Below are positions 1 to 24,722 of a DNA stretch of 25,297 nucleotides, in pieces. Below the pieces are notes generated by a model, which was not told where the DNA came from, searched no databases, and saw nothing but the letters and a program-made list of their open reading frames with translations. Positions within the stretch are counted from its first letter, which is position 1; every line of letters begins with the position of its first letter. The stretch lies in IMG/VR virus record IMGVR_UViG_3300048126_000219, positions 1 through 25,297 of that record; one strand, given 5' to 3'. A program made the position numbers and the translations under genes. Source of the stretch: a virus.

Positions 1-930
1 CAAACATTTGATGATTATAACAATCTATGATTAGACGTTGGTGTTTACTTTGGCGATAAAAAAGAATTAGGAAAAACTCATACTATTTGTACATGGCAAA
101 GTTTGAATAGTATTAAGAAAAGATTTAGAGAAGGTGAATCAGACCTAAGTTTAGCAGACTTTGCTGAAGACGTTGTATGTGTAATAGTAGATGAGGTGCA
201 CCAAGCAAAAGCAGATGTGTTAAAAGAATTACTTACTAAAGAATTTGCAAACATTCCACTACGTTGGGGATTAACAGGTACTATACCTAAAGCAGATCAT
301 GAGAAAGTTAGTTTGCAAGCATGCTTAGGTGATGTAACTAATAAACTTAGTGCAAGCGAACTACAAGGCATGGATGTGCTTAGTCAATGTCATGTTAACG
401 TTGTGCAAATGAAAGAATTTGCAGAGTATAATAATTATCAAAGCGAATTAACTTATCTTACTACAGATAAAGATCGTATGCAATATGTAAGTGGATTAAT
501 TGAAAAAGTATCAGCATCAGGCAATACACTTGTATTAGTAGATAGGATTAAAGCAGGTGGATTAATTTGTGATAATCTTCCACAAGCTAACTTTGTTAGT
601 GGAGAAATGAAAACTACAGATCGTAAAGATCAGTATGATAATATTAATGAAGGAACTAATCAAATTGTAGTAGCAACTTATGGAGTTGCGGCAGTAGGAA
701 TTAACATTCCACGTATTTTTAATCTGGTACTAATAGAACCTGGAAAGAGTTTTGTTAGAGTCATTCAAAGTATTGGTCGTGGAATACGTAAAGCAGAAGA
801 TAAAGATAATGTTCAAATATGGGACATCACCAGTACAGCAAAATTTAGCAAAAAACACTTAACAGAGCGTAAGAAGTTTTATAAAGAAGCAAACTATCCA
901 TTCAGCATTGAAAAAGTTGATTGGCAATAA
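1..930 (+). CDS. uvsW: UvsW-like superfamily 2 helicase, 3' part, interrupted by in-frame TGA
   Basis: This is the carboxy-terminal two thirds of a UvsW-type ATP-dependent helicase, which in T4 remodels branched DNA and ends origin-dependent replication. Helicase motifs run in order: TWQS near nt 91-102, a DEVH Walker B box at about nt 193-204, GLTGT near nt 268-282, a VVATYGVAAVGINI segment (motif V) and QSIGRGIRKAED (motif VI). The 5' end, including Walker A, lies outside the window. In frame, nt 28-30 are TGA, between QTFDDYNNL and LDVGVYFGD. Both sides match the UvsW family in the same frame, so a single base change (for example from GGA) explains it better than an indel. TGA is an ordinary stop elsewhere in this window. 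A TTG at 103 could restart but has no clear Shine-Dalgarno. Confidence 0.85.
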
Positions 931-2114: not shown

Positions 2115-2779
2115 CGTTTACGGCTTTAGATCTAAATATAACAGATGAAGATAGAAAAGCTATGTATAATGAAGTAATGTCAGTTGATGATAGTTACTGG
2201 CATTATAACGAATTTCGTGGATGCAAGATGCTACCTGTATTTAATGCAGAAGGTCAACTTGGCGGACAAGCAGAAGGCAAAAATACAAGATATGGAGAGT
2301 TTGCATATACCAAACCTGCACAGAATTGGACATTTACACAAAAACTTTTAAAAGAAAAAGTATTTCCATGGATGGAACCAGTTGGCAGAGTTACTATTTT
2401 AAGAACGCCAGCAAACTATGGATTAAATGTACATTTAGATAGTAAGGTTGATGAAATAGGATCACTGCAACATAAATTTAGAATCGTGTTAAACGGTAAT
2501 GTTGATAAATTGTATTTTATAGATAAGAAAGATAATAAAGTTTATATTCCACAAAATTATACTACATATGTATTGGATGGTAGTCATCCACATGCACTTG
2601 AGCCAGGTACAGAAGAAAAAGTCACATTATGTATAGGTGCTCCATGGACTGGACAACCAACAGAAAAATATGTTGACTTGATTAATAACTCGTTATATAC
2701 TATGAAAGTTAGTAGACCAGAAAACTTAAAAGAGAATTGGACTGATCCTTTCTGGAAAAAGGAAACTGTTAATGTATAA
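2111..2779 (+). CDS. Putative 2OG-Fe(II)-dependent dioxygenase / aspartyl hydroxylase-like protein
   Basis: This 222-residue protein carries the signature of the double-stranded beta-helix dioxygenases that use Fe(II) and 2-oxoglutarate to hydroxylate a substrate. An HxD pair occurs at H108/D110 (NVHLD), followed by a QHKFRIVLNG strand (H121, R124) like the one in aspartyl/asparaginyl beta-hydroxylases. A distal histidine lies in LDGSHPHALEPG (H159 or H161) and a basic residue follows in KVTLCIGAPW (K170). The substrate is unknown; phage homologues of this fold are common in marine T4-like phages. It starts inside the stop of the gene upstream (ATGA), and its end overlaps the zinc-finger gene by 8 nt, so the three are probably translated as a coupled set. 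Confidence 0.6.
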   Translation: MTFTALDLNITDEDRKAMYNEVMSVDDSYWHYNEFRGCKMLPVFNAEGQLGGQAEGKNTRYGEFAYTKPAQNWTFTQKLLKEKVFPWMEPVGRVTILRTPANYGLNVHLDSKVDEIGSLQHKFRIVLNGNVDKLYFIDKKDNKVYIPQNYTTYVLDGSHPHALEPGTEEKVTLCIGAPWTGQPTEKYVDLINNSLYTMKVSRPENLKENWTDPFWKKETVNV

Positions 2780-3443
2780 ATGCGGATACTGTTCTAAAAC
2801 ATTTAAAAAAGAAAGTACACTAGCTGTTCATATGTGTGAACAGAAACGTAGATTTATGCAAAAAGGAGAACAACATGTTCAACTTGGTTTTAGAGCATTT
2901 CAATTATTTTATAAAATAGGAACAAATTCAAAGAATGAAAAAAGCTACGAAGATTTTGCAAAGAGTCAATACTATATTGGCTTCTGTAAGTTTGGTTATT
3001 ATTGTCGCGACATTGGTATCGATGATGTTCCGGCTTACGCAACTTGGTTAGTAAGAAACCAAGTAAGACTTGACCATTGGTGTAAAGATAAACAGTTTAC
3101 ATCATGGATGAAAGAACGTTTAAGAACTGAGACAGTAGATAGGGCAGTAGAACGTACAATACTATTTTTACAAAACTGGGCAAAAGAAAACAATACAACA
3201 TATAATAATTATTTTGAAATAGTATCACCTAATTTAGCAGTATTTCATATTTGTAGTGGAAAGATTTCGCCATGGGTACTATTTAATAGTAATGCGGCGC
3301 AAGGATTAATTGATAGATTTAATCCTGAACAAATTAAAATGGTTACTGATTATTTAGAAATAGATTATTGGGAACGTGCAATGAAAGTAAACCCACAAGA
3401 TACTAAATGGGTAAAAGAAATAATGGAGCAAGCAACTATATGA
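2772..3443 (+). CDS. Zinc-finger phage protein, unknown function
   Basis: This 223-residue protein has an N-terminal zinc finger: C4 and C7 (CGYC), twelve residues, then H20 and C22. That is a CCHC-like variant of the classical C2H2 finger. The rest (about residues 35-223) is a helical, aromatic-rich domain with no motif I recognise. An AAGGA Shine-Dalgarno lies just before the ATG at 2772. Similar zinc-finger proteins occur in T4-like cyanophages, but I know no assigned function. Nucleic-acid or protein binding is an inference from the finger alone. The TGA stop overlaps the next start at 3440 (ATGA). Confidence 0.75.
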   Translation: MYKCGYCSKTFKKESTLAVHMCEQKRRFMQKGEQHVQLGFRAFQLFYKIGTNSKNEKSYEDFAKSQYYIGFCKFGYYCRDIGIDDVPAYATWLVRNQVRLDHWCKDKQFTSWMKERLRTETVDRAVERTILFLQNWAKENNTTYNNYFEIVSPNLAVFHICSGKISPWVLFNSNAAQGLIDRFNPEQIKMVTDYLEIDYWERAMKVNPQDTKWVKEIMEQATI

Positions 3444-3526
3444 TATGGTCTTTGCTTTTTGTATTATGTTGTTTTATAATACCAATTTTTTTATTGTATA
3501 AAATGAACAACGAGGATCCAAAATGA
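3440..3526 (+). CDS. 28-residue single-pass membrane peptide
   Basis: This tiny ORF reads MIWSLLFVLCCFIIPIFLLY followed by KMNNEDPK and TGA. Residues 2-20 form one continuous hydrophobic segment, and the short charged tail would face the cytoplasm or periplasm. Its ATG overlaps the stop of the zinc-finger gene (ATGA), and its own TGA overlaps the ATG at 3523 in the same way, so it lies in a translationally coupled chain with no spare bases. That arrangement, and an amino-acid composition typical of a real membrane helix, argue for a gene. AT-rich DNA can give hydrophobic ORFs by chance, so confidence is moderate. The function is unknown. Confidence 0.55.
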   Translation: MIWSLLFVLCCFIIPIFLLYKMNNEDPK

Positions 3527-4107
3527 TAGTAAACACAGATATTGATATTGATGTAGCAAATAGAGATAAGCTACTTAATATTATTAATGGAATACCAGCA
3601 ATGATTGCACGTGATAACAAGCAAGTTAAGCACAATACTGGTATATACTTCCATGACATTCCTAGCAATCCATTTACAGGTATGTCTACAATTGATCACA
3701 AAGAAGCTGAAAGTATGGGATATTTTAAAATTGATATACTTAACGTTGGCTTATATAAAAAGATTGAATCTAAGAAACAATTAGATGATTTACTAGCAAT
3801 GGAACCAATGTGGGAATTGTTAGAACACAAAGAAGTTGTAGAACAATGTTTTCATATTCATAAACACTTTGGTGTTGTTGGGCAGATGAAACCTAAGAGT
3901 GTAGAACAAATGGCCGCAGTATTAGCAGTAATTAGACCAGCCAAAAGATATTTAATTGGTAAAGATTGGAATACCATTAATAATGAAGTATGGATAAAGC
4001 CTACAAATGGCGACTACTATTTTAAGAAAGCACATGCCCATGCATATGCAATGGCTATTGTATTACAATTAAATATGCTTGCTACTGGTTTTTCTTTACA
4101 AGATTAA
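3523..4107 (+). CDS. Miniature C-family (DnaE-like) DNA polymerase core protein
   Basis: This 194-residue protein carries, in DnaE order, shortened versions of the bacterial Pol III alpha palm and finger blocks. DIDIDVANRDKLL (residues 6-18) matches the PDxDxDF..RRDEV block holding the first two catalytic aspartates. H37-N-T-G40 matches the HAGG segment. GYFKIDILNVGLYKKI (66-81, D71) matches the KFDFLGLRTLT block with the third aspartate. FGVVGQM (116-122), KPKSVEQMAAVLAVIRPA (123-140) and KKAHAHAYAMAIVLQLNML (168-186) match the FQ.ES, RPxxFEDMIALVALFRPGPL and NKSHSAAYALVSYQTLWLK blocks. PHP, thumb, clamp-binding and OB domains are absent. It could be a minimal polymerase, a nucleotide-binding regulator or a relic. 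Its ATG overlaps the membrane peptide stop, and its 3' end overlaps a convergent gene. Confidence 0.7.
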   Translation: MIVNTDIDIDVANRDKLLNIINGIPAMIARDNKQVKHNTGIYFHDIPSNPFTGMSTIDHKEAESMGYFKIDILNVGLYKKIESKKQLDDLLAMEPMWELLEHKEVVEQCFHIHKHFGVVGQMKPKSVEQMAAVLAVIRPAKRYLIGKDWNTINNEVWIKPTNGDYYFKKAHAHAYAMAIVLQLNMLATGFSLQD

Positions 4108-4453
4108 TACTTCTGCGTTTGATACGTTTAGTAATGCTATTACTTAATCTTACTTCAGGCCCTGCAATTACGTCCATTTGTTTAACATTAAAACTTTGTA
4201 CACAATATTGGAAATTCCATCTATTAAGTAATGCAATATTAATAGGTAACTTTCTATTAGTTTCCCACCACCATTCTTCGCCAAGTGCTAAGAACTTTGC
4301 TTTTTCTGAGGTTTCGTTTAATCGATCGTAGACATACATACTAGCAACATGGTTATCTATGTTTTGAATTATACCAAGATACTCATTGCTAGCATACTCT
4401 ACTACAGTAAGGAACGGATATTCGTCCAAGAGTTTCTGATGTTTCGTTTGCAT
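4082..4453 (-). CDS. Conserved phage protein on minus strand, unknown function
   Basis: This is the only gene I support on the minus strand. It encodes 123 residues starting MQTKHQKLLDEYPFLTVVEY. The blocks YLGIIQNIDNHVASMYVYD, EEWWWETNRKLPINIAL and a basic end (KRIKRRSINLVKK) resemble a protein I remember as a conserved hypothetical in T4-like cyanophages. Its codon use and composition look genuine, whereas the opposite-strand frame (4119-4331) reads as a shadow. It converges on the mini-polymerase gene with a 26-nt tail overlap. A late-promoter box at 4460-4467 points into it, and a transcript from there would begin at or next to the ATG. No catalytic motif is visible. Confidence 0.75.
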   Translation of the reverse strand: MQTKHQKLLDEYPFLTVVEYASNEYLGIIQNIDNHVASMYVYDRLNETSEKAKFLALGEEWWWETNRKLPINIALLNRWNFQYCVQSFNVKQMDVIAGPEVRLSNSITKRIKRRSINLVKKNQ

Positions 4454-5359: not shown

Positions 5360-6373
5360 ATGGCTTTAATGAATGAATACGTGAGAACTCTGGTTCCGGT
5401 TAATTGGCGGTCTAGCCCTAGTGGTTGGATTAGCGGTAACTGTCCTATGTGTGTACGTAATGGACAAGCAAGACCAGATAAGAAAGGCAGAGGTGGGTTC
5501 TTATTTGATGATGATAAATTTCAGTATAATTGTTTTAATTGCAACTATAAAACAGGTTGGAGTCCACAAAGTAAAATTACAGTAAGGTTAAAAAACTTGT
5601 TAGTTACACTTGGTGCTGATGAGAGTGATATACAACGTATACAGTTAGAACTATTACGTGAACAAGACGTAGAAACATTATTAATAAAAACTGAAAAACG
5701 TAAAAATTTAGTTATTGATTGGGATGAGAAAAAACTTCCTGATGATGCAAAACCTTTTATGGAATTTACAGAGCCAAATGCAGATTGGACAGAAGCAGTA
5801 GCATACTTAACAGATCGAGGATTCGATGTAACAGATTCTAGATTTATGTGGAGTCCTAGTAAACAGCATGGAAGAGTAAATAAAAGATTTATATTACCAT
5901 TTACATATAAAGGTAAAGTAGTTGGTTATACAGCAAGATGGGCAGGAAACAATATTCCTGACGGAATGCCTAAATACTATAATCAGCAACCTAAAAAAGA
6001 CTTTGTATATGGGTTAGATAAACAAACCAGTGATAAACAGTTTGTTATTGTAACTGAAGGCCAACTTGATGCTATTGTTACAGATGGTTGTGCAATTGGT
6101 AGTAATAATATAAATGACGAACAAGCAGACATATTACATAGCTTAGAAAAACAAATTATAGTATTACCAGACGCAGATGAAGCTGGTAAATTAATGTGTA
6201 AATCAGCTATAAAAAATGGTTGGATGGTAGCATTTCCCGAGTGGAAAGATTGTAAAGATGCAAGTGATGCCTTGACAAAATACGGAAGATTGTATACAAT
6301 AACAAGTATAATAGATAGTGCTGAAAAGAATTCAACTAAAATTGAACTATTAATGAGAAAGTATTGCAAATGA
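5360..6373 (+). CDS. 61: DNA primase, T4 gp61-like
   Basis: The protein has 337 residues, close to the length of T4 gp61 (342). It makes RNA primers for lagging-strand synthesis with the gp41 helicase. An N-terminal zinc ribbon has C28/C31 (CPMC) and C58/C61 (CFNC). A TOPRIM domain follows, with VIVTEGQLDA (E233) and VLPDADEAG (D271, D273), the acidic residues that hold metal. The middle (about 140-215) has the RGF...RFILPF and YYNQQPKKDFVYGLD segments usual in DnaG/gp61 relatives. The ATG at 5360 has no strong Shine-Dalgarno; an in-frame ATG at 5369 is an alternative. The stop TGA overlaps the helicase ATG at 6370, fitting the primosome pairing. Confidence 0.9.
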   Translation: MALMNEYVRTLVPVNWRSSPSGWISGNCPMCVRNGQARPDKKGRGGFLFDDDKFQYNCFNCNYKTGWSPQSKITVRLKNLLVTLGADESDIQRIQLELLREQDVETLLIKTEKRKNLVIDWDEKKLPDDAKPFMEFTEPNADWTEAVAYLTDRGFDVTDSRFMWSPSKQHGRVNKRFILPFTYKGKVVGYTARWAGNNIPDGMPKYYNQQPKKDFVYGLDKQTSDKQFVIVTEGQLDAIVTDGCAIGSNNINDEQADILHSLEKQIIVLPDADEAGKLMCKSAIKNGWMVAFPEWKDCKDASDALTKYGRLYTITSIIDSAEKNSTKIELLMRKYCK

Positions 6374-7773
6374 CAGAACAAGCAAAAGAATATAATATAG
6401 ATCTACAACGATTGTTTGTAGAATTTTTAGCACAAGATAAAGACTTATTTGCTAGGGTAAACGGCATATTAGATCCTGAATACTTTGATAGAGAATTACG
6501 TAAAGGTGTAGAGTTTATAAAAGAACATGCAACTGGATATAGTGCATTACCTACATTAGAACAAATTGTAGCAACAACAGGATTAGAATTACAAGAATTA
6601 AAAGACGTAGATGATAGACATAAGAAATGGTTTATTGATGAGTTTGAAGTATTTTGTAAACATAAAGCATTAGAAGCGGCAATTTTAAAAAGTGCAGATT
6701 TATTGGAAAAGGGTGATTATGGACCAGTAGAACGTATGGTAAAAGAAGCAGTACAAATTGGACTTGCTAAACATATGGGAACAGACTATTGGGAATCTCC
6801 TGCAGAACGTATTGAAAGAGTACGTAATCAGCGTGGCGGTACAAGTACAGGTTGGGCAGAAATTGATAAGAAACTATATGGTGGATTTAATAGAGGTGAA
6901 TTGAATATATTTGCTGCACCATCAGGTGGTGGTAAGAGTTTGTTCTTACAAAACTTAGGATTAAATTGGGCACTAGCAGGCTTGAATGTTGTATACATTA
7001 GTTTAGAACTTAGTGAAGAACTATGTAGTATGCGATTAGATAGTATGTTAACAGGAATGAATACACGTGACGTATTTAAAAATGCAGATGACGTAGATTT
7101 AAAAGTACGTATGCAAGGTAAAAATGCAGGTAAATTACAAATTGTACAATTACCAAATGGTATTACAATCAATGCTATTACTAGTTACTTACGTGAATAT
7201 GAAGTTAAGAACGATATTAAAATTGATGCAATTTGTATAGATTACTTAGACTTAATGATGCCAGCACAGAGCAAAGTTAATCCTAGTGATTTGTTTATTA
7301 AAGATAAGTTTGTATCTGAAGAATTGCGTAACTTTGCAGTAGAACATGATTTACTATTTGCTACAGCATCACAGCTAAACAGAGCGGCTGTAGAAGAAGT
7401 AGAATTTGATCATTCTCATATTGCTGGTGGTTTAAGTAAGATTCAAACAGCGGATAACGTAATTGGTATTTTTACAAGCCAAGCTATGCGTGAACGTGGG
7501 CGTTATCAAATTCAGTTTATGAAAACACGTAGTAGTAGCGGTGTTGGACAAAAAGTAGACTTAAAATTTGATATATCAGGCTTACGTATTGAGGACTTAG
7601 ATGACGATGAAGCAGGATCTACAATGAATCAACCTAGTGCTATGTTTGAGAAAATTAAGGCACAAAACAAAACAACACACCAAGAAAAGAACATTGCTGA
7701 GAATAGTGTTGTTGAAAACACTATAACAGGGCATGATAAACTTCGCAGTATGCTCAAAAGAAGTAATAGTTAG
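6370..7773 (+). CDS. 41: Replicative DNA helicase, T4 gp41-like (DnaB family)
   Basis: The protein has 467 residues from ATG 6370, close to T4 gp41 (475). It is the hexameric helicase that unwinds the fork and binds primase. Residues 1-140 form the helical N-terminal domain. The RecA-like core follows: Walker A APSGGGKS (184-191), YISLELSEEL (209-218), Walker B IDAICIDYLDLMM (about 285-297, D291), and ATASQLNR as the DnaB Q-motif segment. A KTRSSSGVG arginine-rich turn comes later. The last 60 residues are low-complexity and end LRSMLKRSNS, probably a partner-binding tail. I chose ATG 6370 over TTG 6364 because of the ATGA overlap with the primase stop. Confidence 0.93.
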   Translation: MTEQAKEYNIDLQRLFVEFLAQDKDLFARVNGILDPEYFDRELRKGVEFIKEHATGYSALPTLEQIVATTGLELQELKDVDDRHKKWFIDEFEVFCKHKALEAAILKSADLLEKGDYGPVERMVKEAVQIGLAKHMGTDYWESPAERIERVRNQRGGTSTGWAEIDKKLYGGFNRGELNIFAAPSGGGKSLFLQNLGLNWALAGLNVVYISLELSEELCSMRLDSMLTGMNTRDVFKNADDVDLKVRMQGKNAGKLQIVQLPNGITINAITSYLREYEVKNDIKIDAICIDYLDLMMPAQSKVNPSDLFIKDKFVSEELRNFAVEHDLLFATASQLNRAAVEEVEFDHSHIAGGLSKIQTADNVIGIFTSQAMRERGRYQIQFMKTRSSSGVGQKVDLKFDISGLRIEDLDDDEAGSTMNQPSAMFEKIKAQNKTTHQEKNIAENSVVENTITGHDKLRSMLKRSNS

Positions 7774-8060: not shown

Positions 8061-9250
8061 AAATAACAGATATTGTAGGAAGCAAAAAGCGTAAGCCTAG
8101 AAATTCTAGACTACATAGATTAATTGGAAAAGATTTATTCCAACCAGAAGCTAAAAAGCTACGTGAAGATGCACGTATTCAGCATTTAGAAGACTTAATT
8201 CTATGGGATGCTTCAGCGGGTGCAAGAAAAGCAATTGCTACACTACATCAAGTAGAACAACAACCTAACACAGTAACTATTAAATGGGATGGATCTCCGG
8301 CCGTTATATTTGGTCGTAATGAACAAGGCGAGTTTATATTAACAGATAAGAGTGGATTTACTGCTAAAGGATATGATGGTAAACCAACTAGTGCTGAAGG
8401 CTTAGAAAAAATGTTATTCAATCGTCCTGGTGCAAGCAATCCTGATGCTACTAAAGCGGCAAACTATAAAGCATTCGCAGGTAAAATGAGAAGTATCTGG
8501 GATAAAGTAGAAGCAACTGTACCAAGTGATTTTAGAGGATATGTAATGGGTGACTTACTATGGTTTACAACGCCAGACGTAAAAGAAAACAAATATATAT
8601 TCACTCCTAATACAACAACATATCAGGTTAAAGTAGATAGCGAAGTTGGAAAGAAAATAACAGACAGTGACGTAGGTGTCGTAGTACACATGTCAATTGG
8701 ACTTGATGGCGAAAAGAGTAAAGTTGATATGTCACAATTCCAAGGTGGACCAACATATATTATGCCACCTGTAATGGTACAAAAATCACCAGGTGTAGAT
8801 ATTCCAGCAATAGACGAATTAGAGAATTATTTAGATAAAAATGCACAAGCAATAGATAAATTGTTTGCAGTACCAGCAGAATTAAAAATGGCAGACTTTG
8901 GTAAGATACTTTATGCTTATATTAATAATAGTGTAAAAGCAGGTAACTTAGATAATTTAGGAAGTACATTTCAAAAGTATGTTGAAGGAAGTAAATTATC
9001 AAAACCAAAACAAGCTCGTCTTTTAGAATACATAAATAGTAACATAGATGGGTTTAATGCAACTTTTAATTTTATTAAAGGAATTATGAAAGTTAAAAAT
9101 ACAGTCATCAAAACTTTAGACGCACAAGACGCAGATGTAGAATCATATACAAATGGACAACGTGGCGGAGAAGGTTATGTAGTTGACAAAGATGTTAAAC
9201 TTGTTAATAGAGCAGGCTTTACAGCGGCAAACATGGCAAGGAATAATTAA
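8057..9250 (+). CDS. Putative ligase-fold nucleotidyltransferase, late phage protein
   Basis: This 397-residue protein has a spaced set of blocks like those of covalent nucleotidyltransferases (DNA/RNA ligases and capping enzymes). TIKWDGSPAVIFGR (74-87) holds a motif I KxDG with K76 as the candidate nucleotidylated lysine. GYVMGDLLWF (161-170) resembles motif III, where ligases have GE. GGEGYVVDKDVKLVNR (370-385) resembles motif IV (EGxVxK-like, E372) followed by a motif V lysine (K381). The 200 residues between the last two blocks are longer than usual and contain a helical insert (about 255-350). It would join or adenylylate an unknown substrate. The family is abundant but uncharacterised in marine T4-like phages as far as I recall. 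It lies in a late-expressed cluster, which is odd for replication ligases. Confidence 0.6.
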   Translation: MKITDIVGSKKRKPRNSRLHRLIGKDLFQPEAKKLREDARIQHLEDLILWDASAGARKAIATLHQVEQQPNTVTIKWDGSPAVIFGRNEQGEFILTDKSGFTAKGYDGKPTSAEGLEKMLFNRPGASNPDATKAANYKAFAGKMRSIWDKVEATVPSDFRGYVMGDLLWFTTPDVKENKYIFTPNTTTYQVKVDSEVGKKITDSDVGVVVHMSIGLDGEKSKVDMSQFQGGPTYIMPPVMVQKSPGVDIPAIDELENYLDKNAQAIDKLFAVPAELKMADFGKILYAYINNSVKAGNLDNLGSTFQKYVEGSKLSKPKQARLLEYINSNIDGFNATFNFIKGIMKVKNTVIKTLDAQDADVESYTNGQRGGEGYVVDKDVKLVNRAGFTAANMARNN

Positions 9251-24302: not shown

Positions 24303-24722
24303 ATGGCATATTCAGAAAAAGTGTTAGACCACTACAATAACCCACGAAATGTAGGTAAAATGGATGCCAATGCCGCAGACGTAGGAACAGGTATGGTAGG
24401 AGCTCCGGCTTGTGGTGACGTAATGCGGTTACAAATTAAAGTAACAGATGGTATCATAGAAGATGCAAAATTTAAAACATATGGTTGCGGTAGTGCAATT
24501 GCTAGTTCAAGTATGGTAACAACTATGTTAAAAGGTATGAATTTAATTGAAGCTGGTGAAATAAAAAATACAACGATAGTTGAAGAACTAGCGTTGCCAC
24601 CAGTTAAGATTCATTGTAGTGTGTTAGCAGAAGATGCAATTAAAGCTGCGGTTAGAGATTATCAAGGTAAAAATCCTAATGATGAAACTGGCAACTATTA
24701 TGAATTAAAACATCATAGATAG
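24303..24722 (+). CDS. iscU: Fe-S cluster scaffold protein IscU
   Basis: This 139-residue protein closely follows bacterial IscU from the first residue (MAYSEKVLDHYNNPRNVGKM). The scaffold ligands are all present: C37 and D39 in GAPACGDVM, C62 in YGCGSAIASSS, and H104 and C105 in LPPVKIHCSVLAEDAIKAA. The LPPVK site (98-102), where HscA chaperone binds, is kept, so it should accept host IscS/HscA/HscB partners. Residues 120-139 extend past the usual end. No iscS, iscA or ferredoxin gene is nearby, so it works with host machinery. TAGGAG precedes the ATG. It looks host-derived and functional. Confidence 0.95.
   Translation: MAYSEKVLDHYNNPRNVGKMDANAADVGTGMVGAPACGDVMRLQIKVTDGIIEDAKFKTYGCGSAIASSSMVTTMLKGMNLIEAGEIKNTTIVEELALPPVKIHCSVLAEDAIKAAVRDYQGKNPNDETGNYYELKHHR

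What the first reader, a model, noticed from the sequence alone, without database searches (positions are those of the whole stretch)
3523..4107. Miniature C-family DNA polymerase (DnaE-like) in a T4-like phage
A 194-residue protein keeps the order of DnaE blocks: DIDIDV with the first two catalytic aspartates, an H-x-x-G segment, GYFKIDILNVG with the third aspartate (D71), an FGVVGQ block, a KPKSVEQM...IRPA block and a KKAHAHAYA block. Spacing is greatly shortened, and PHP, thumb, clamp-binding and OB domains are missing. T4-like phages normally use a B-family polymerase (gp43), so a stripped C-family core would be a new polymerase type, an inhibitor of host Pol III, or a nucleotide sensor. 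It sits in a coupled chain with a zinc-finger protein and a membrane peptide.
Basis: partly seen in the sequence, partly recalled or inferred. Interest (0 to 1): 0.88.

Follow-up and report, generated by a model that had tools for sequence, protein, structure and literature searches.

The report
Half of a split phage polymerase
This marine phage gene encodes one half of a tiny bacterial-type DNA polymerase whose other half is a separate gene elsewhere in the phage genome; the split enzyme was described in giant phages in 2021, but what it does in the infected cell is still unknown.

Summary
Window 3523-4107 encodes a 194-residue protein with the ordered C-family (DnaE) blocks, in a known family, PHROG 11778 "DNA polymerase". 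D6, D8 and D71 line up with E. coli D401, D403 and D555, and H171 with the presumed steric-gate H760; all four are invariant in 48 of 48 aligned sequences. Profile comparison with DnaE gives E 1.2e-8; the best of 40 column shuffles gives 0.14. Structure searches rank Pol III alpha and PolC first.

The interpretation needs correcting. This is not a complete miniature polymerase: it lacks the nucleotide-triphosphate-binding GxGRGS segment. That sits in a second protein (168 aa, PHROG 11127), encoded about 117 kb away on a 204,772-base virus contig that also encodes an identical copy of the window protein. The partner ends just before the point where the window protein begins. All 11 named phages tested have both halves plus a B-family polymerase. 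Iyer et al. 2021 (PMC7824862) already described this split minimal Pol III alpha in jumbo phages.

Most likely the two proteins assemble one active site and act beside the B-family replicase, perhaps extending primers. Assembly and activity are inferred.

The parts
3523..4107 (+). C-terminal half of a split minimal Pol III alpha (194 aa, PHROG 11778): metal-binding palm strands plus a shortened fingers segment
3538..3552 (+). DIDID: D6 and D8 (E. coli D401, D403), D10 (D405)
   Evidence: invariant in 48 of 48 aligned sequences; register and from E. coli dnaE numbering
3727..3735 (+). K69-I-D71: third catalytic Asp (E. coli K553, D555)
   Evidence: 48 of 48; numbering
3934..3945 (+). R138-P139-A-K141, start of the fingers (E. 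coli 'ALFRPG')
   Evidence: 48 of 48 for R138, P139 and K141; alignment
4033..4047 (+). H171...Y175: presumed steric-gate helix (E. coli H760, Y764)
   Evidence: 48 of 48; alignment, numbering; H760 as presumptive steric gate: PMC8485763 passages
2772..3443 (+). C2HC zinc-finger protein (223 aa, PHROG 11058), in most loci just upstream; candidate accessory subunit
   Evidence: same locus in 71 of 74; 15 of 15 records; the profile contains sequences from 10 of them
3440..3526 (+). 28-aa hydrophobic peptide ORF, overlapping both neighbours by ATGA; not general in the family
4082..4453 (-). Convergent gene overlapping the 3' end of the half-polymerase (123 aa, PHROG 11637, basic C-terminal tail); the most constant neighbour
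   Evidence: 73 of 74 loci; 15 of 15 records; the profile contains sequences from 12 of them
103..930 (+). UvsW-like helicase (listed ORF; cut by the window edge)
5360..6373 (+). gp61-like (DnaG Toprim) primase
   Evidence: same locus in 72 of 74
6364..7773 (+). gp41-like (DnaB) replicative helicase
   Evidence: same locus in 72 of 74

Best explanation
The 194-aa protein is the C-terminal half of a split, minimal Pol III alpha (DnaE-type) polymerase. It supplies the three metal-binding aspartates and the shortened fingers with the presumed steric-gate histidine. A second phage protein (168 aa, encoded about 117 kb away on the contig with the identical protein) supplies the GxGRGS nucleotide-triphosphate-binding part of the palm. 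The two should associate in trans to form one dNTP-using active site at the position of the break. With no PHP and little room for a thumb or for OB and clamp-binding parts, it should be a distributive polymerase. From its place beside primase (gp61) and helicase (gp41), and the coexistence of a B-family replicase, I think its likeliest job is short extension of primers at the phage fork before the B-family polymerase takes over, as B. subtilis DnaE does for PolC.

Shown: homology, complementarity of the halves, invariance of the catalytic residues, co-occurrence and gene order. Inferred: association, activity and role. The confidence below is for the split enzyme; for the fork role alone I would say about 0.4.
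For: C-half homology to DnaE: 9 of 9 PDB hits are Pol III alpha; the top 12 Foldseek rows are Pol III alpha or PolC-type entries; 9qrn is titled only 'DNA polymerase'; 3f2b Z 8.1, 190 aligned, 4.0 A; E. coli 2hnh residues 398-787, Z 7.8. Two C-halves (W09, W11) pass the Pfam cut-off for Pol III fingers, PF17657.

N-half homology to DnaE: (5lew Z 8.5; 4jom residues 279-386, Z 8.1). The halves cover adjacent, non-overlapping stretches of E. coli DnaE. All 32 N-halves stop within 5 residues after invariant E165, the place of E. coli FERFL (388-392), and the window protein starts five residues before D401.

Invariant D6/D8/D71/H171 in 48 of 48 aligned C-halves; G134, G136, R137, G138 and S139 in 32 of 32 N-halves.

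Co-occurrence: 11 of 11 named phages tested have both halves and PolB; the N-half profile was built from IMG/VR sequences only, so these hits are independent of it. 56 of the 60 listed C-half records are among the 60 listed N-half records, and 2 of the other 4 have the N-half by profile.

Replication neighbourhood: gp61 and gp41 in 72 of 74 loci. Purifying selection. DnaE-to-PolC hand-off precedent: abstract of PMC5627055 in a search listing.
Against: No co-fold of the two chains could be run, so association is inferred.

AlphaFold confidence is moderate: C-half pLDDT 80, pTM 0.69, with residues 1-7, which hold the first aspartate, under 50. N-half pLDDT 83, pTM 0.62, with 137-140, in the GRGS motif, under 50. 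Foldseek E-values are weak (4e-3 for C, 0.34 for N) and the Z values lie in the range the tool calls middling.

About 121 residues of DnaE fingers (R639 to H760) shrink to 33, and 106 thumb-region residues (D405 to H511) to 27, so polymerase activity may be altered or lost.

16 of 24 IMG/VR contigs searched have the C-half without a separate N-half (15 with no match, G017 only inside a compact DnaE), and 5 have N without C. Their completeness is not known. Of the four contig ends I examined, two (G012, G014) stop within about 3 kb of where gene order predicts the N-half and two (G002, G011) stop earlier; 12 were not examined.

In XacN1 and RAS14 no gp61 or gp41 was found in the 18-kb locus of the C-half, which weakens the primer-extension role.
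Confidence: 0.75

Rival explanations
1. Same split enzyme, but a repair, gap-filling or recombination polymerase (acting with the UvsX/Y/W system) rather than a fork primer-extender.
For: UvsW-like helicase lies in the same locus in 70 of 74. In K64-1, PBECO4 and GAP32 genes annotated as an exonuclease (in two of them as a DNA polymerase exonuclease subunit) and UvsX/UvsY-like recombination proteins lie in the same stretch, and PF00929 matches occur in 9 of 19 records (8 over cut-off). Iyer et al. [quoted passage not shown]
Against: Primase and helicase are equally constant neighbours. No PF00929 match in 8 of 8 IMG/VR contigs tested, including the one with the identical protein.
Confidence: 0.35
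2. A catalytically inert remnant kept as a structural or regulatory replisome subunit, or as an inhibitor or decoy of host Pol III.
For: Thumb region and fingers are much shortened and PHP is gone. The phages have their own B-family polymerase. Not tested directly here.
Against: All three catalytic aspartates, K69, R138 and the steric-gate histidine are invariant in 48 of 48 aligned sequences, and the NTP-binding motif in 32 of 32 partners. A decoy needs no active site. Hosts range over several bacterial genera.
Confidence: 0.12
3. The 194-aa protein alone is a complete miniature C-family polymerase.
For: It holds all catalytic aspartates and the presumed steric gate.
Against: It lacks the GRGS segment that E. 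coli DnaE has at 361-364. That segment is on a separate co-occurring protein that ends where this one starts.
Confidence: 0.04
4. The halves are joined by a split intein or by trans-splicing into one chain.
For: A split PolB with an intein is reported for the related phage MIJ3 (PMC6892783 passages).
Against: All 32 N-halves stop within 5 residues after E165. The 48 C-half ORFs have at most 29 residues before the DID block, the window protein 5. That leaves little or no room for intein pieces; no intein search was run.
Confidence: 0.02

Closest known systems
Split minimal DNA polymerase III alpha of group 2.2 jumbo phages (Iyer et al. 2021, PMC7824862; section 13 (3.4.1) and passages read)
   Same: Two separate proteins from distant genes: an N-terminal NTP-binding half and a C-terminal Mg2+/template half; coexists with a family B polymerase and a gp41-type helicase.
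   Different: Found here in marine IMG/VR phages related to the PA5oct/Atu_ph07 group and in a 141-kb circular phage record. The break point, invariance counts, steric gate and two constant companion genes are documented here; the text I read does not give them (its Figure 3b is not held).
PHROG 11778 (C-half) and PHROG 11127 (N-half), both annotated 'DNA polymerase'
   Same: Nearly full-length matches, E 1.1e-64 and 1.1e-43.
   Different: Nothing: this is the same family.
Truncated Pol III alpha CBB_328 of phage CBB (PMC5259590, passages)
   Same: 172-aa Pol III alpha fragment in a Rak2-like phage with a gp43 homologue; the N-half search hits a CBB gene annotated DNA polymerase III alpha, which I take to be CBB_328 (inference).
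   Different: The passages I saw mention one fragment and call it truncated.
E. coli DnaE (Pol III alpha) and Gram-positive PolC
   Same: Catalytic aspartates, presumed steric-gate helix and GRGS motif in the same order as DnaE; best structural matches.
   Different: One chain (E. coli DnaE 1160 aa) with PHP, thumb, full fingers and further C-terminal parts; here two chains of 168 and 194 aa.
Compact single-chain phage DnaE without PHP (548 aa, P0003 in contig G017)
   Same: C-family palm and fingers in a phage, next to gp41.
   Different: Single chain; over the Pfam cut-offs for both palm and fingers models.

Membership tests
C-family DNA polymerase (Pol III alpha) catalytic core | Metal-binding Asp triad D401/D403/D555 | tested here: met
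   D6, D8, D71 in 48 of 48 aligned sequences; [quoted passage not shown]
C-family DNA polymerase (Pol III alpha) catalytic core | Presumptive steric-gate His (E. coli H760) | tested here: met
   H171 in 48 of 48; PMC8485763 passages
C-family DNA polymerase (Pol III alpha) catalytic core | GRGS NTP-binding segment in the same chain | tested here: not met
   Not in the 194-aa protein; no significant N-half match in the window's six frames (best E 0.32); present in the separate partner, 32 of 32
C-family DNA polymerase (Pol III alpha) catalytic core | Profile similarity to DnaE | tested here: met
   hhalign E 1.2e-8 (C) and 2.7e-12 (N), 40 shuffles each far below; but no Pfam hit for the single C-half sequence and prob 5.7 against E. 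coli DnaE alone
C-family DNA polymerase (Pol III alpha) catalytic core | Pol-beta-type palm fold with the three Asp clustered | tested here: inconclusive
   Whole model aligns to PolC/DnaE; strands at 7-10 and 69-73 hold D8, D10 and D71; but no coordinates were available to measure distances and residues 1-7 have low confidence
C-family DNA polymerase (Pol III alpha) catalytic core | Fingers domain (PF17657) | tested here: inconclusive
   Partial matches inside the C-half in 11 of 15 records at E up to 1; two of them (W09, W11) over the cut-off; none in G001
C-family DNA polymerase (Pol III alpha) catalytic core | PHP domain (nearly universal in bacterial members, PMC3919608) | tested here: not met
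   0 of 15 phage records have a PF02811 match; all 14 controls do
C-family DNA polymerase (Pol III alpha) catalytic core | DNA polymerase activity | not testable with these tools
   no biochemistry
[quoted passage not shown]
Split minimal Pol III alpha of jumbo phages (PMC7824862) | Genes distant from each other | tested here: met
   about 117 kb apart on contig G001; but only about 11-15 kb in W08, W09 and W11
Split minimal Pol III alpha of jumbo phages (PMC7824862) | Accompanied by a family B polymerase | tested here: met
   G001 and 11 of 11 named records have PF00136 matches
Split minimal Pol III alpha of jumbo phages (PMC7824862) | Host phage is a jumbo phage (over 200 kb) | tested here: inconclusive
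   The window is a 25,297-base record; the contig with the identical protein is 204,772 bases, completeness not known. A 141,431-base circular record also has the pair

The most novel reading that the evidence does not exclude
These phages run a dedicated four-part minimal C-family polymerase: the two half-palms, the C2HC zinc-finger protein and the convergent protein with a basic tail, all four found in 14 of the 15 records searched. The active site is assembled in trans across two chains, with the zinc-finger and basic proteins replacing the lost thumb/fingers DNA grip. It works as a primer-extending polymerase inside a T4-type B-family replisome.
Probability: 0.2. Interest if true: 0.8.

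Novelty: new member of a known kind. Interest (0 to 1): 0.45.

Why it matters
If the halves work together, this would be the smallest C-family polymerase I know of (recalled; 362 residues in two chains) and one whose active site is divided between two genes, alongside a B-family replicase in the same phage. It would show how little of Pol III is needed for catalysis and bear on how that family arose. It is simple to test: two small proteins, one primer-template, clear active-site mutants. Many of the homologous genes listed are annotated as hypothetical protein or putative membrane protein, so the pair is easily overlooked.

Tried and rejected
Complete miniature polymerase: rejected, because the NTP-binding segment is on another protein.

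Chance motif match: rejected by the shuffled and reversed profile controls.

Split intein: thought unlikely, because little extension is seen at the break; no intein search was run.

Missing partner as evidence against pairing: of 16 IMG/VR contigs with C but no separate N, I examined four contig ends. G012 ends about 0.6 kb after a gene whose homologue lies about 2.6 kb before the N-half in G001. G014 ends inside a ClpP-like gene whose homologue follows the N-half in G001. G011 ends earlier in the stretch shared with G014. G002 ends about 10 kb past PolB, where G001 has the N-half about 19 kb past it. The other 12 were not examined.

Same-strand rule: N and C lie on one strand in 14 of 14 records holding both, but the flanks in G012 and G014 predict opposite strands there, so I do not use it as evidence.

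DnaQ-type exonuclease as a constant partner: not supported (9 of 19 records).

Separate fingers or PHP protein elsewhere: PHP in 0 of 15. PF17657 matched 11 of 15 records at E up to 1, 3 over cut-off, in 13 places: 11 lie inside the C-half itself, one in the compact DnaE of G017 and one (weak) in a 558-aa frame of GAP32 that I did not identify.

By-construction caveats: the zinc-finger profile holds sequences from 10 of the 15 records it was searched in, and the convergent-gene profile from 12, plus the window itself, whose near copy is G001. The 11 named records were chosen because they have the C-half. The 74 loci include near-identical contigs: the first 80 loci hold 53 distinct sequences over a fixed stretch (a crude cut). 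The 48 C-halves were picked by hand from the 92 ORFs to cut repeats. The 32 N-halves leave out L099 (identical to L100) and L121 (partial).

hhalign places the DIDID block badly in its alignment and the structural alignment may be off in register there; I rely on the HMMER alignment and the numbering of E. coli dnaE for D6=D401.

Not-in-print statement: I found no biochemical study of the split enzyme in searches of an open-access library that lacks most subscription papers.

Paper coverage: PMC7824862 passages and section 13; PMC5259590, PMC3919608, PMC6102473, PMC8485763, PMC12926913 and PMC6892783 passages; PMC5627055 only its abstract in a search listing.

Full report
OBSERVATION. It matches PHROG 11778 'DNA polymerase' over residues 4-187 at E 1.1e-64, and the long phage polymerase family PHROG 405 at E 0.0015. 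Pfam gives nothing for the single sequence. tblastn finds 63 of 50,697 phage records, 35 of them covering at least 80% of the query, many from Rak2-like, Asteriusvirus, Wroclawvirus and Atu_ph07-type large phages. In IMG/VR, 148 of 151 pattern stretches encode relatives. The three closest relatives tested show dN/dS of about 0.05-0.06 (one misaligned row dropped).

C-FAMILY HOMOLOGY. A profile of the family hits only Pol III alpha chains among solved structures, weakly (9 of 9 hits, best E 0.04). Profile-profile comparison with seven DnaE sequences gives prob 94.8, E 1.2e-8, score 46.4. Forty column shuffles reach at most 7.5 and the reversed profile 3.1. Against E. coli DnaE alone the same profile gives only prob 5.7. 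The AlphaFold model (pLDDT 80, pTM 0.69) has Pol III alpha or PolC-type entries as its top 12 Foldseek rows (E 4e-3 to 0.58; 9qrn is titled only 'DNA polymerase'). VIA-align matches PolC 3f2b at Z 8.1 over 190 residues and E. coli 2hnh residues 398-787 at Z 7.8, above unrelated rows at 4.3 and below. The second, clustering of the aspartates, could not be measured because no coordinates were available.

THE MISSING HALF. A PF07733 search of contig G001 (204,772 bases, IMG/VR) found a second gene matching at 32,854-33,105. G001 encodes a 100% identical copy of the window protein with the same neighbours at the same spacing. The full ORF is 168 aa, at 32,875-33,378 without its stop. It belongs to PHROG 11127 'DNA polymerase' and matches Pfam DNA_pol3_alpha at E 1.1e-8. 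It carries GVGRGSS and ends EFLK. The family profile against DnaE gives prob 97.9, E 2.7e-12, and residues 76-161 of its model fit E. coli DnaE 279-386 at Z 8.1, although Foldseek alone was weak (E 0.34). In E. coli DnaE, GRGS lies at 361-364, FERFL at 388-392 and DFDVDF at 401-406. The partner stops at the FERFL position and the window protein starts five residues before D401. No significant N-half match exists in the 25,297-base window (best E 0.32).

ACTIVE SITE. Across 48 distinct C-halves, D6, D8, D10, H37, G40, K69, D71, P124, R138, P139, K141, H171 and Y175 are invariant. Across 32 N-halves, R99, E103, G134, G136, R137, G138, S139 and E165 are invariant. D6, D8 and D71 match the catalytic D401, D403 and D555. 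D10 matches D405, an Asp found in DnaE but replaced by Asn in PolC (PMC3919608), so the family is DnaE-like in this respect. H171 matches H760, the presumptive steric gate of E. coli Pol III (PMC8485763), so dNTPs rather than rNTPs are the expected substrate. The thumb region between the DxD block and the H-x-x-G block is 27 residues (D10 to H37) against 106 in E. coli (D405 to H511). The fingers segment between R138 and H171 is 33 against 121 (R639 to H760).

CO-OCCURRENCE. Of 35 records searched, 30 have the C-half, 20 an N-half match (one of them, in G017, lies inside a different, compact DnaE) and 21 a B-family polymerase. All 11 named phages have all three, as do contigs G001, G023 and G024. 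The named phages were fetched because they have the C-half, but the N-half profile held no sequence of theirs. Fifteen IMG/VR contigs have C without N, G017 has C with only the compact-DnaE match, and five have N without C; their completeness is not known. I looked at four of the C-without-N ends: two (G012, G014) stop within about 3 kb of where conserved flanking genes predict the N-half, and two (G002, G011) stop earlier. Of 60 listed C-half phage records, 56 are among the 60 listed N-half records. Of the other four, OP752703 and OQ508956 have the N-half by profile, and OQ508957 and PP728206 were not tested. Three C rows and 32 N rows were not listed.

NEIGHBOURHOOD. In 74 loci with enough flank, UvsW is found in 70, the zinc-finger protein in 71, the convergent gene in 73, gp61 in 72 and gp41 in 72 (near-identical contigs included). 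In XacN1 and RAS14 no gp61 or gp41 was found in the C-half's 18-kb locus, yet the convergent gene still follows it. There the N-half, zinc-finger gene and C-half lie in that order within about 15 kb on one strand. In Alishewanella phage Slicko01 (141,431 bases, circular) the same order spans about 11 kb. The zinc-finger and convergent families were found in 15 of 15 records searched, partly by construction, since most of those records gave sequences to the profiles. PHP is absent in 15 of 15. A PF00929 (DnaQ-type) exonuclease match is present in 9 of 19, 8 over cut-off. By its gp41 the window phage is nearest to PA5oct/Paride (52.6%), Phosso and Atu_ph07, so it is a relative of that group.

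MECHANISM. The best-supported reading is that two small proteins meet at the break in the palm: the N-half holds the triphosphate, the C-half holds the two metals, the primer end and the sugar gate. Homology, complementarity, conservation and co-occurrence are shown. Association and catalysis are inferred. The fork position suggests primer extension with hand-off to the B-family polymerase, for which B. subtilis DnaE/PolC is a precedent (PMC5627055 abstract). Repair or gap filling is nearly as likely, and Iyer et al. mention both kinds of role.

WHAT IS KNOWN. Iyer et al. [quoted passage not shown] The CBB paper noted a 172-aa truncated alpha, and the Atu_ph07 paper notes alpha and epsilon subunits. 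The window gene is therefore a new member of a known kind. Searches showed no biochemical test.

Noticed in passing
L175 1745-3391 (-), contig G017 (154,976 bases): A compact 548-aa single-chain DnaE without PHP (PF07733 1.8e-43, PF17657 6.8e-15) sits right after gp41 in a phage contig that also carries the C-half but no separate N-half; 410 IMG/VR stretches encode relatives (80 kept). It may show displacement of, or coexistence with, the split enzyme.
   Followed up: partly
window 4082-4453 (-): Convergent 123-aa gene (PHROG 11637, unknown) overlapping the 3' end of the half-polymerase; present in 73 of 74 loci and kept beside it in XacN1 and RAS14, where the cluster is rearranged; mostly basic C-terminal tail.
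   Followed up: partly
window 2772-3443 (+): C2HC zinc-finger protein (PHROG 11058, unknown), found in 15 of 15 records searched; about 3.3 kb from the N-half in XacN1 and RAS14.
   Followed up: partly
L084 8986-9561: The GenBank CDS of the Atu_ph07 homologue (AUZ94883.1) starts at 9067, after the DxD motif, so the deposited protein lacks two catalytic aspartates; the longer ORF has them.
   Followed up: no
L168 (3,733 bases): A contig in a 'Natrialbaceae archaeon' MAG carries zinc-finger gene, an inserted ORF resembling a GIY-YIG endonuclease (recalled resemblance), C-half and convergent gene; probably a viral contig in an archaeal bin.
   Followed up: no
L098/L100: In G001 the N-half is followed by a small unknown gene, a GroES-like gene and a ClpP-like gene, and GroES-like ORFs lie downstream of it in four jumbo phages too (resemblances recalled, no family search).
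   Followed up: no
window 3440-3526 (+): 28-aa hydrophobic peptide ORF coupled by ATGA overlaps to the genes on both sides; a crude scan found one like it in 3 of 15 related loci.
   Followed up: partly
window 24303-24722 (+): 139-aa ORF that looks like an IscU/NifU-type Fe-S scaffold protein in a phage (recalled resemblance, no family search made).
   Followed up: no
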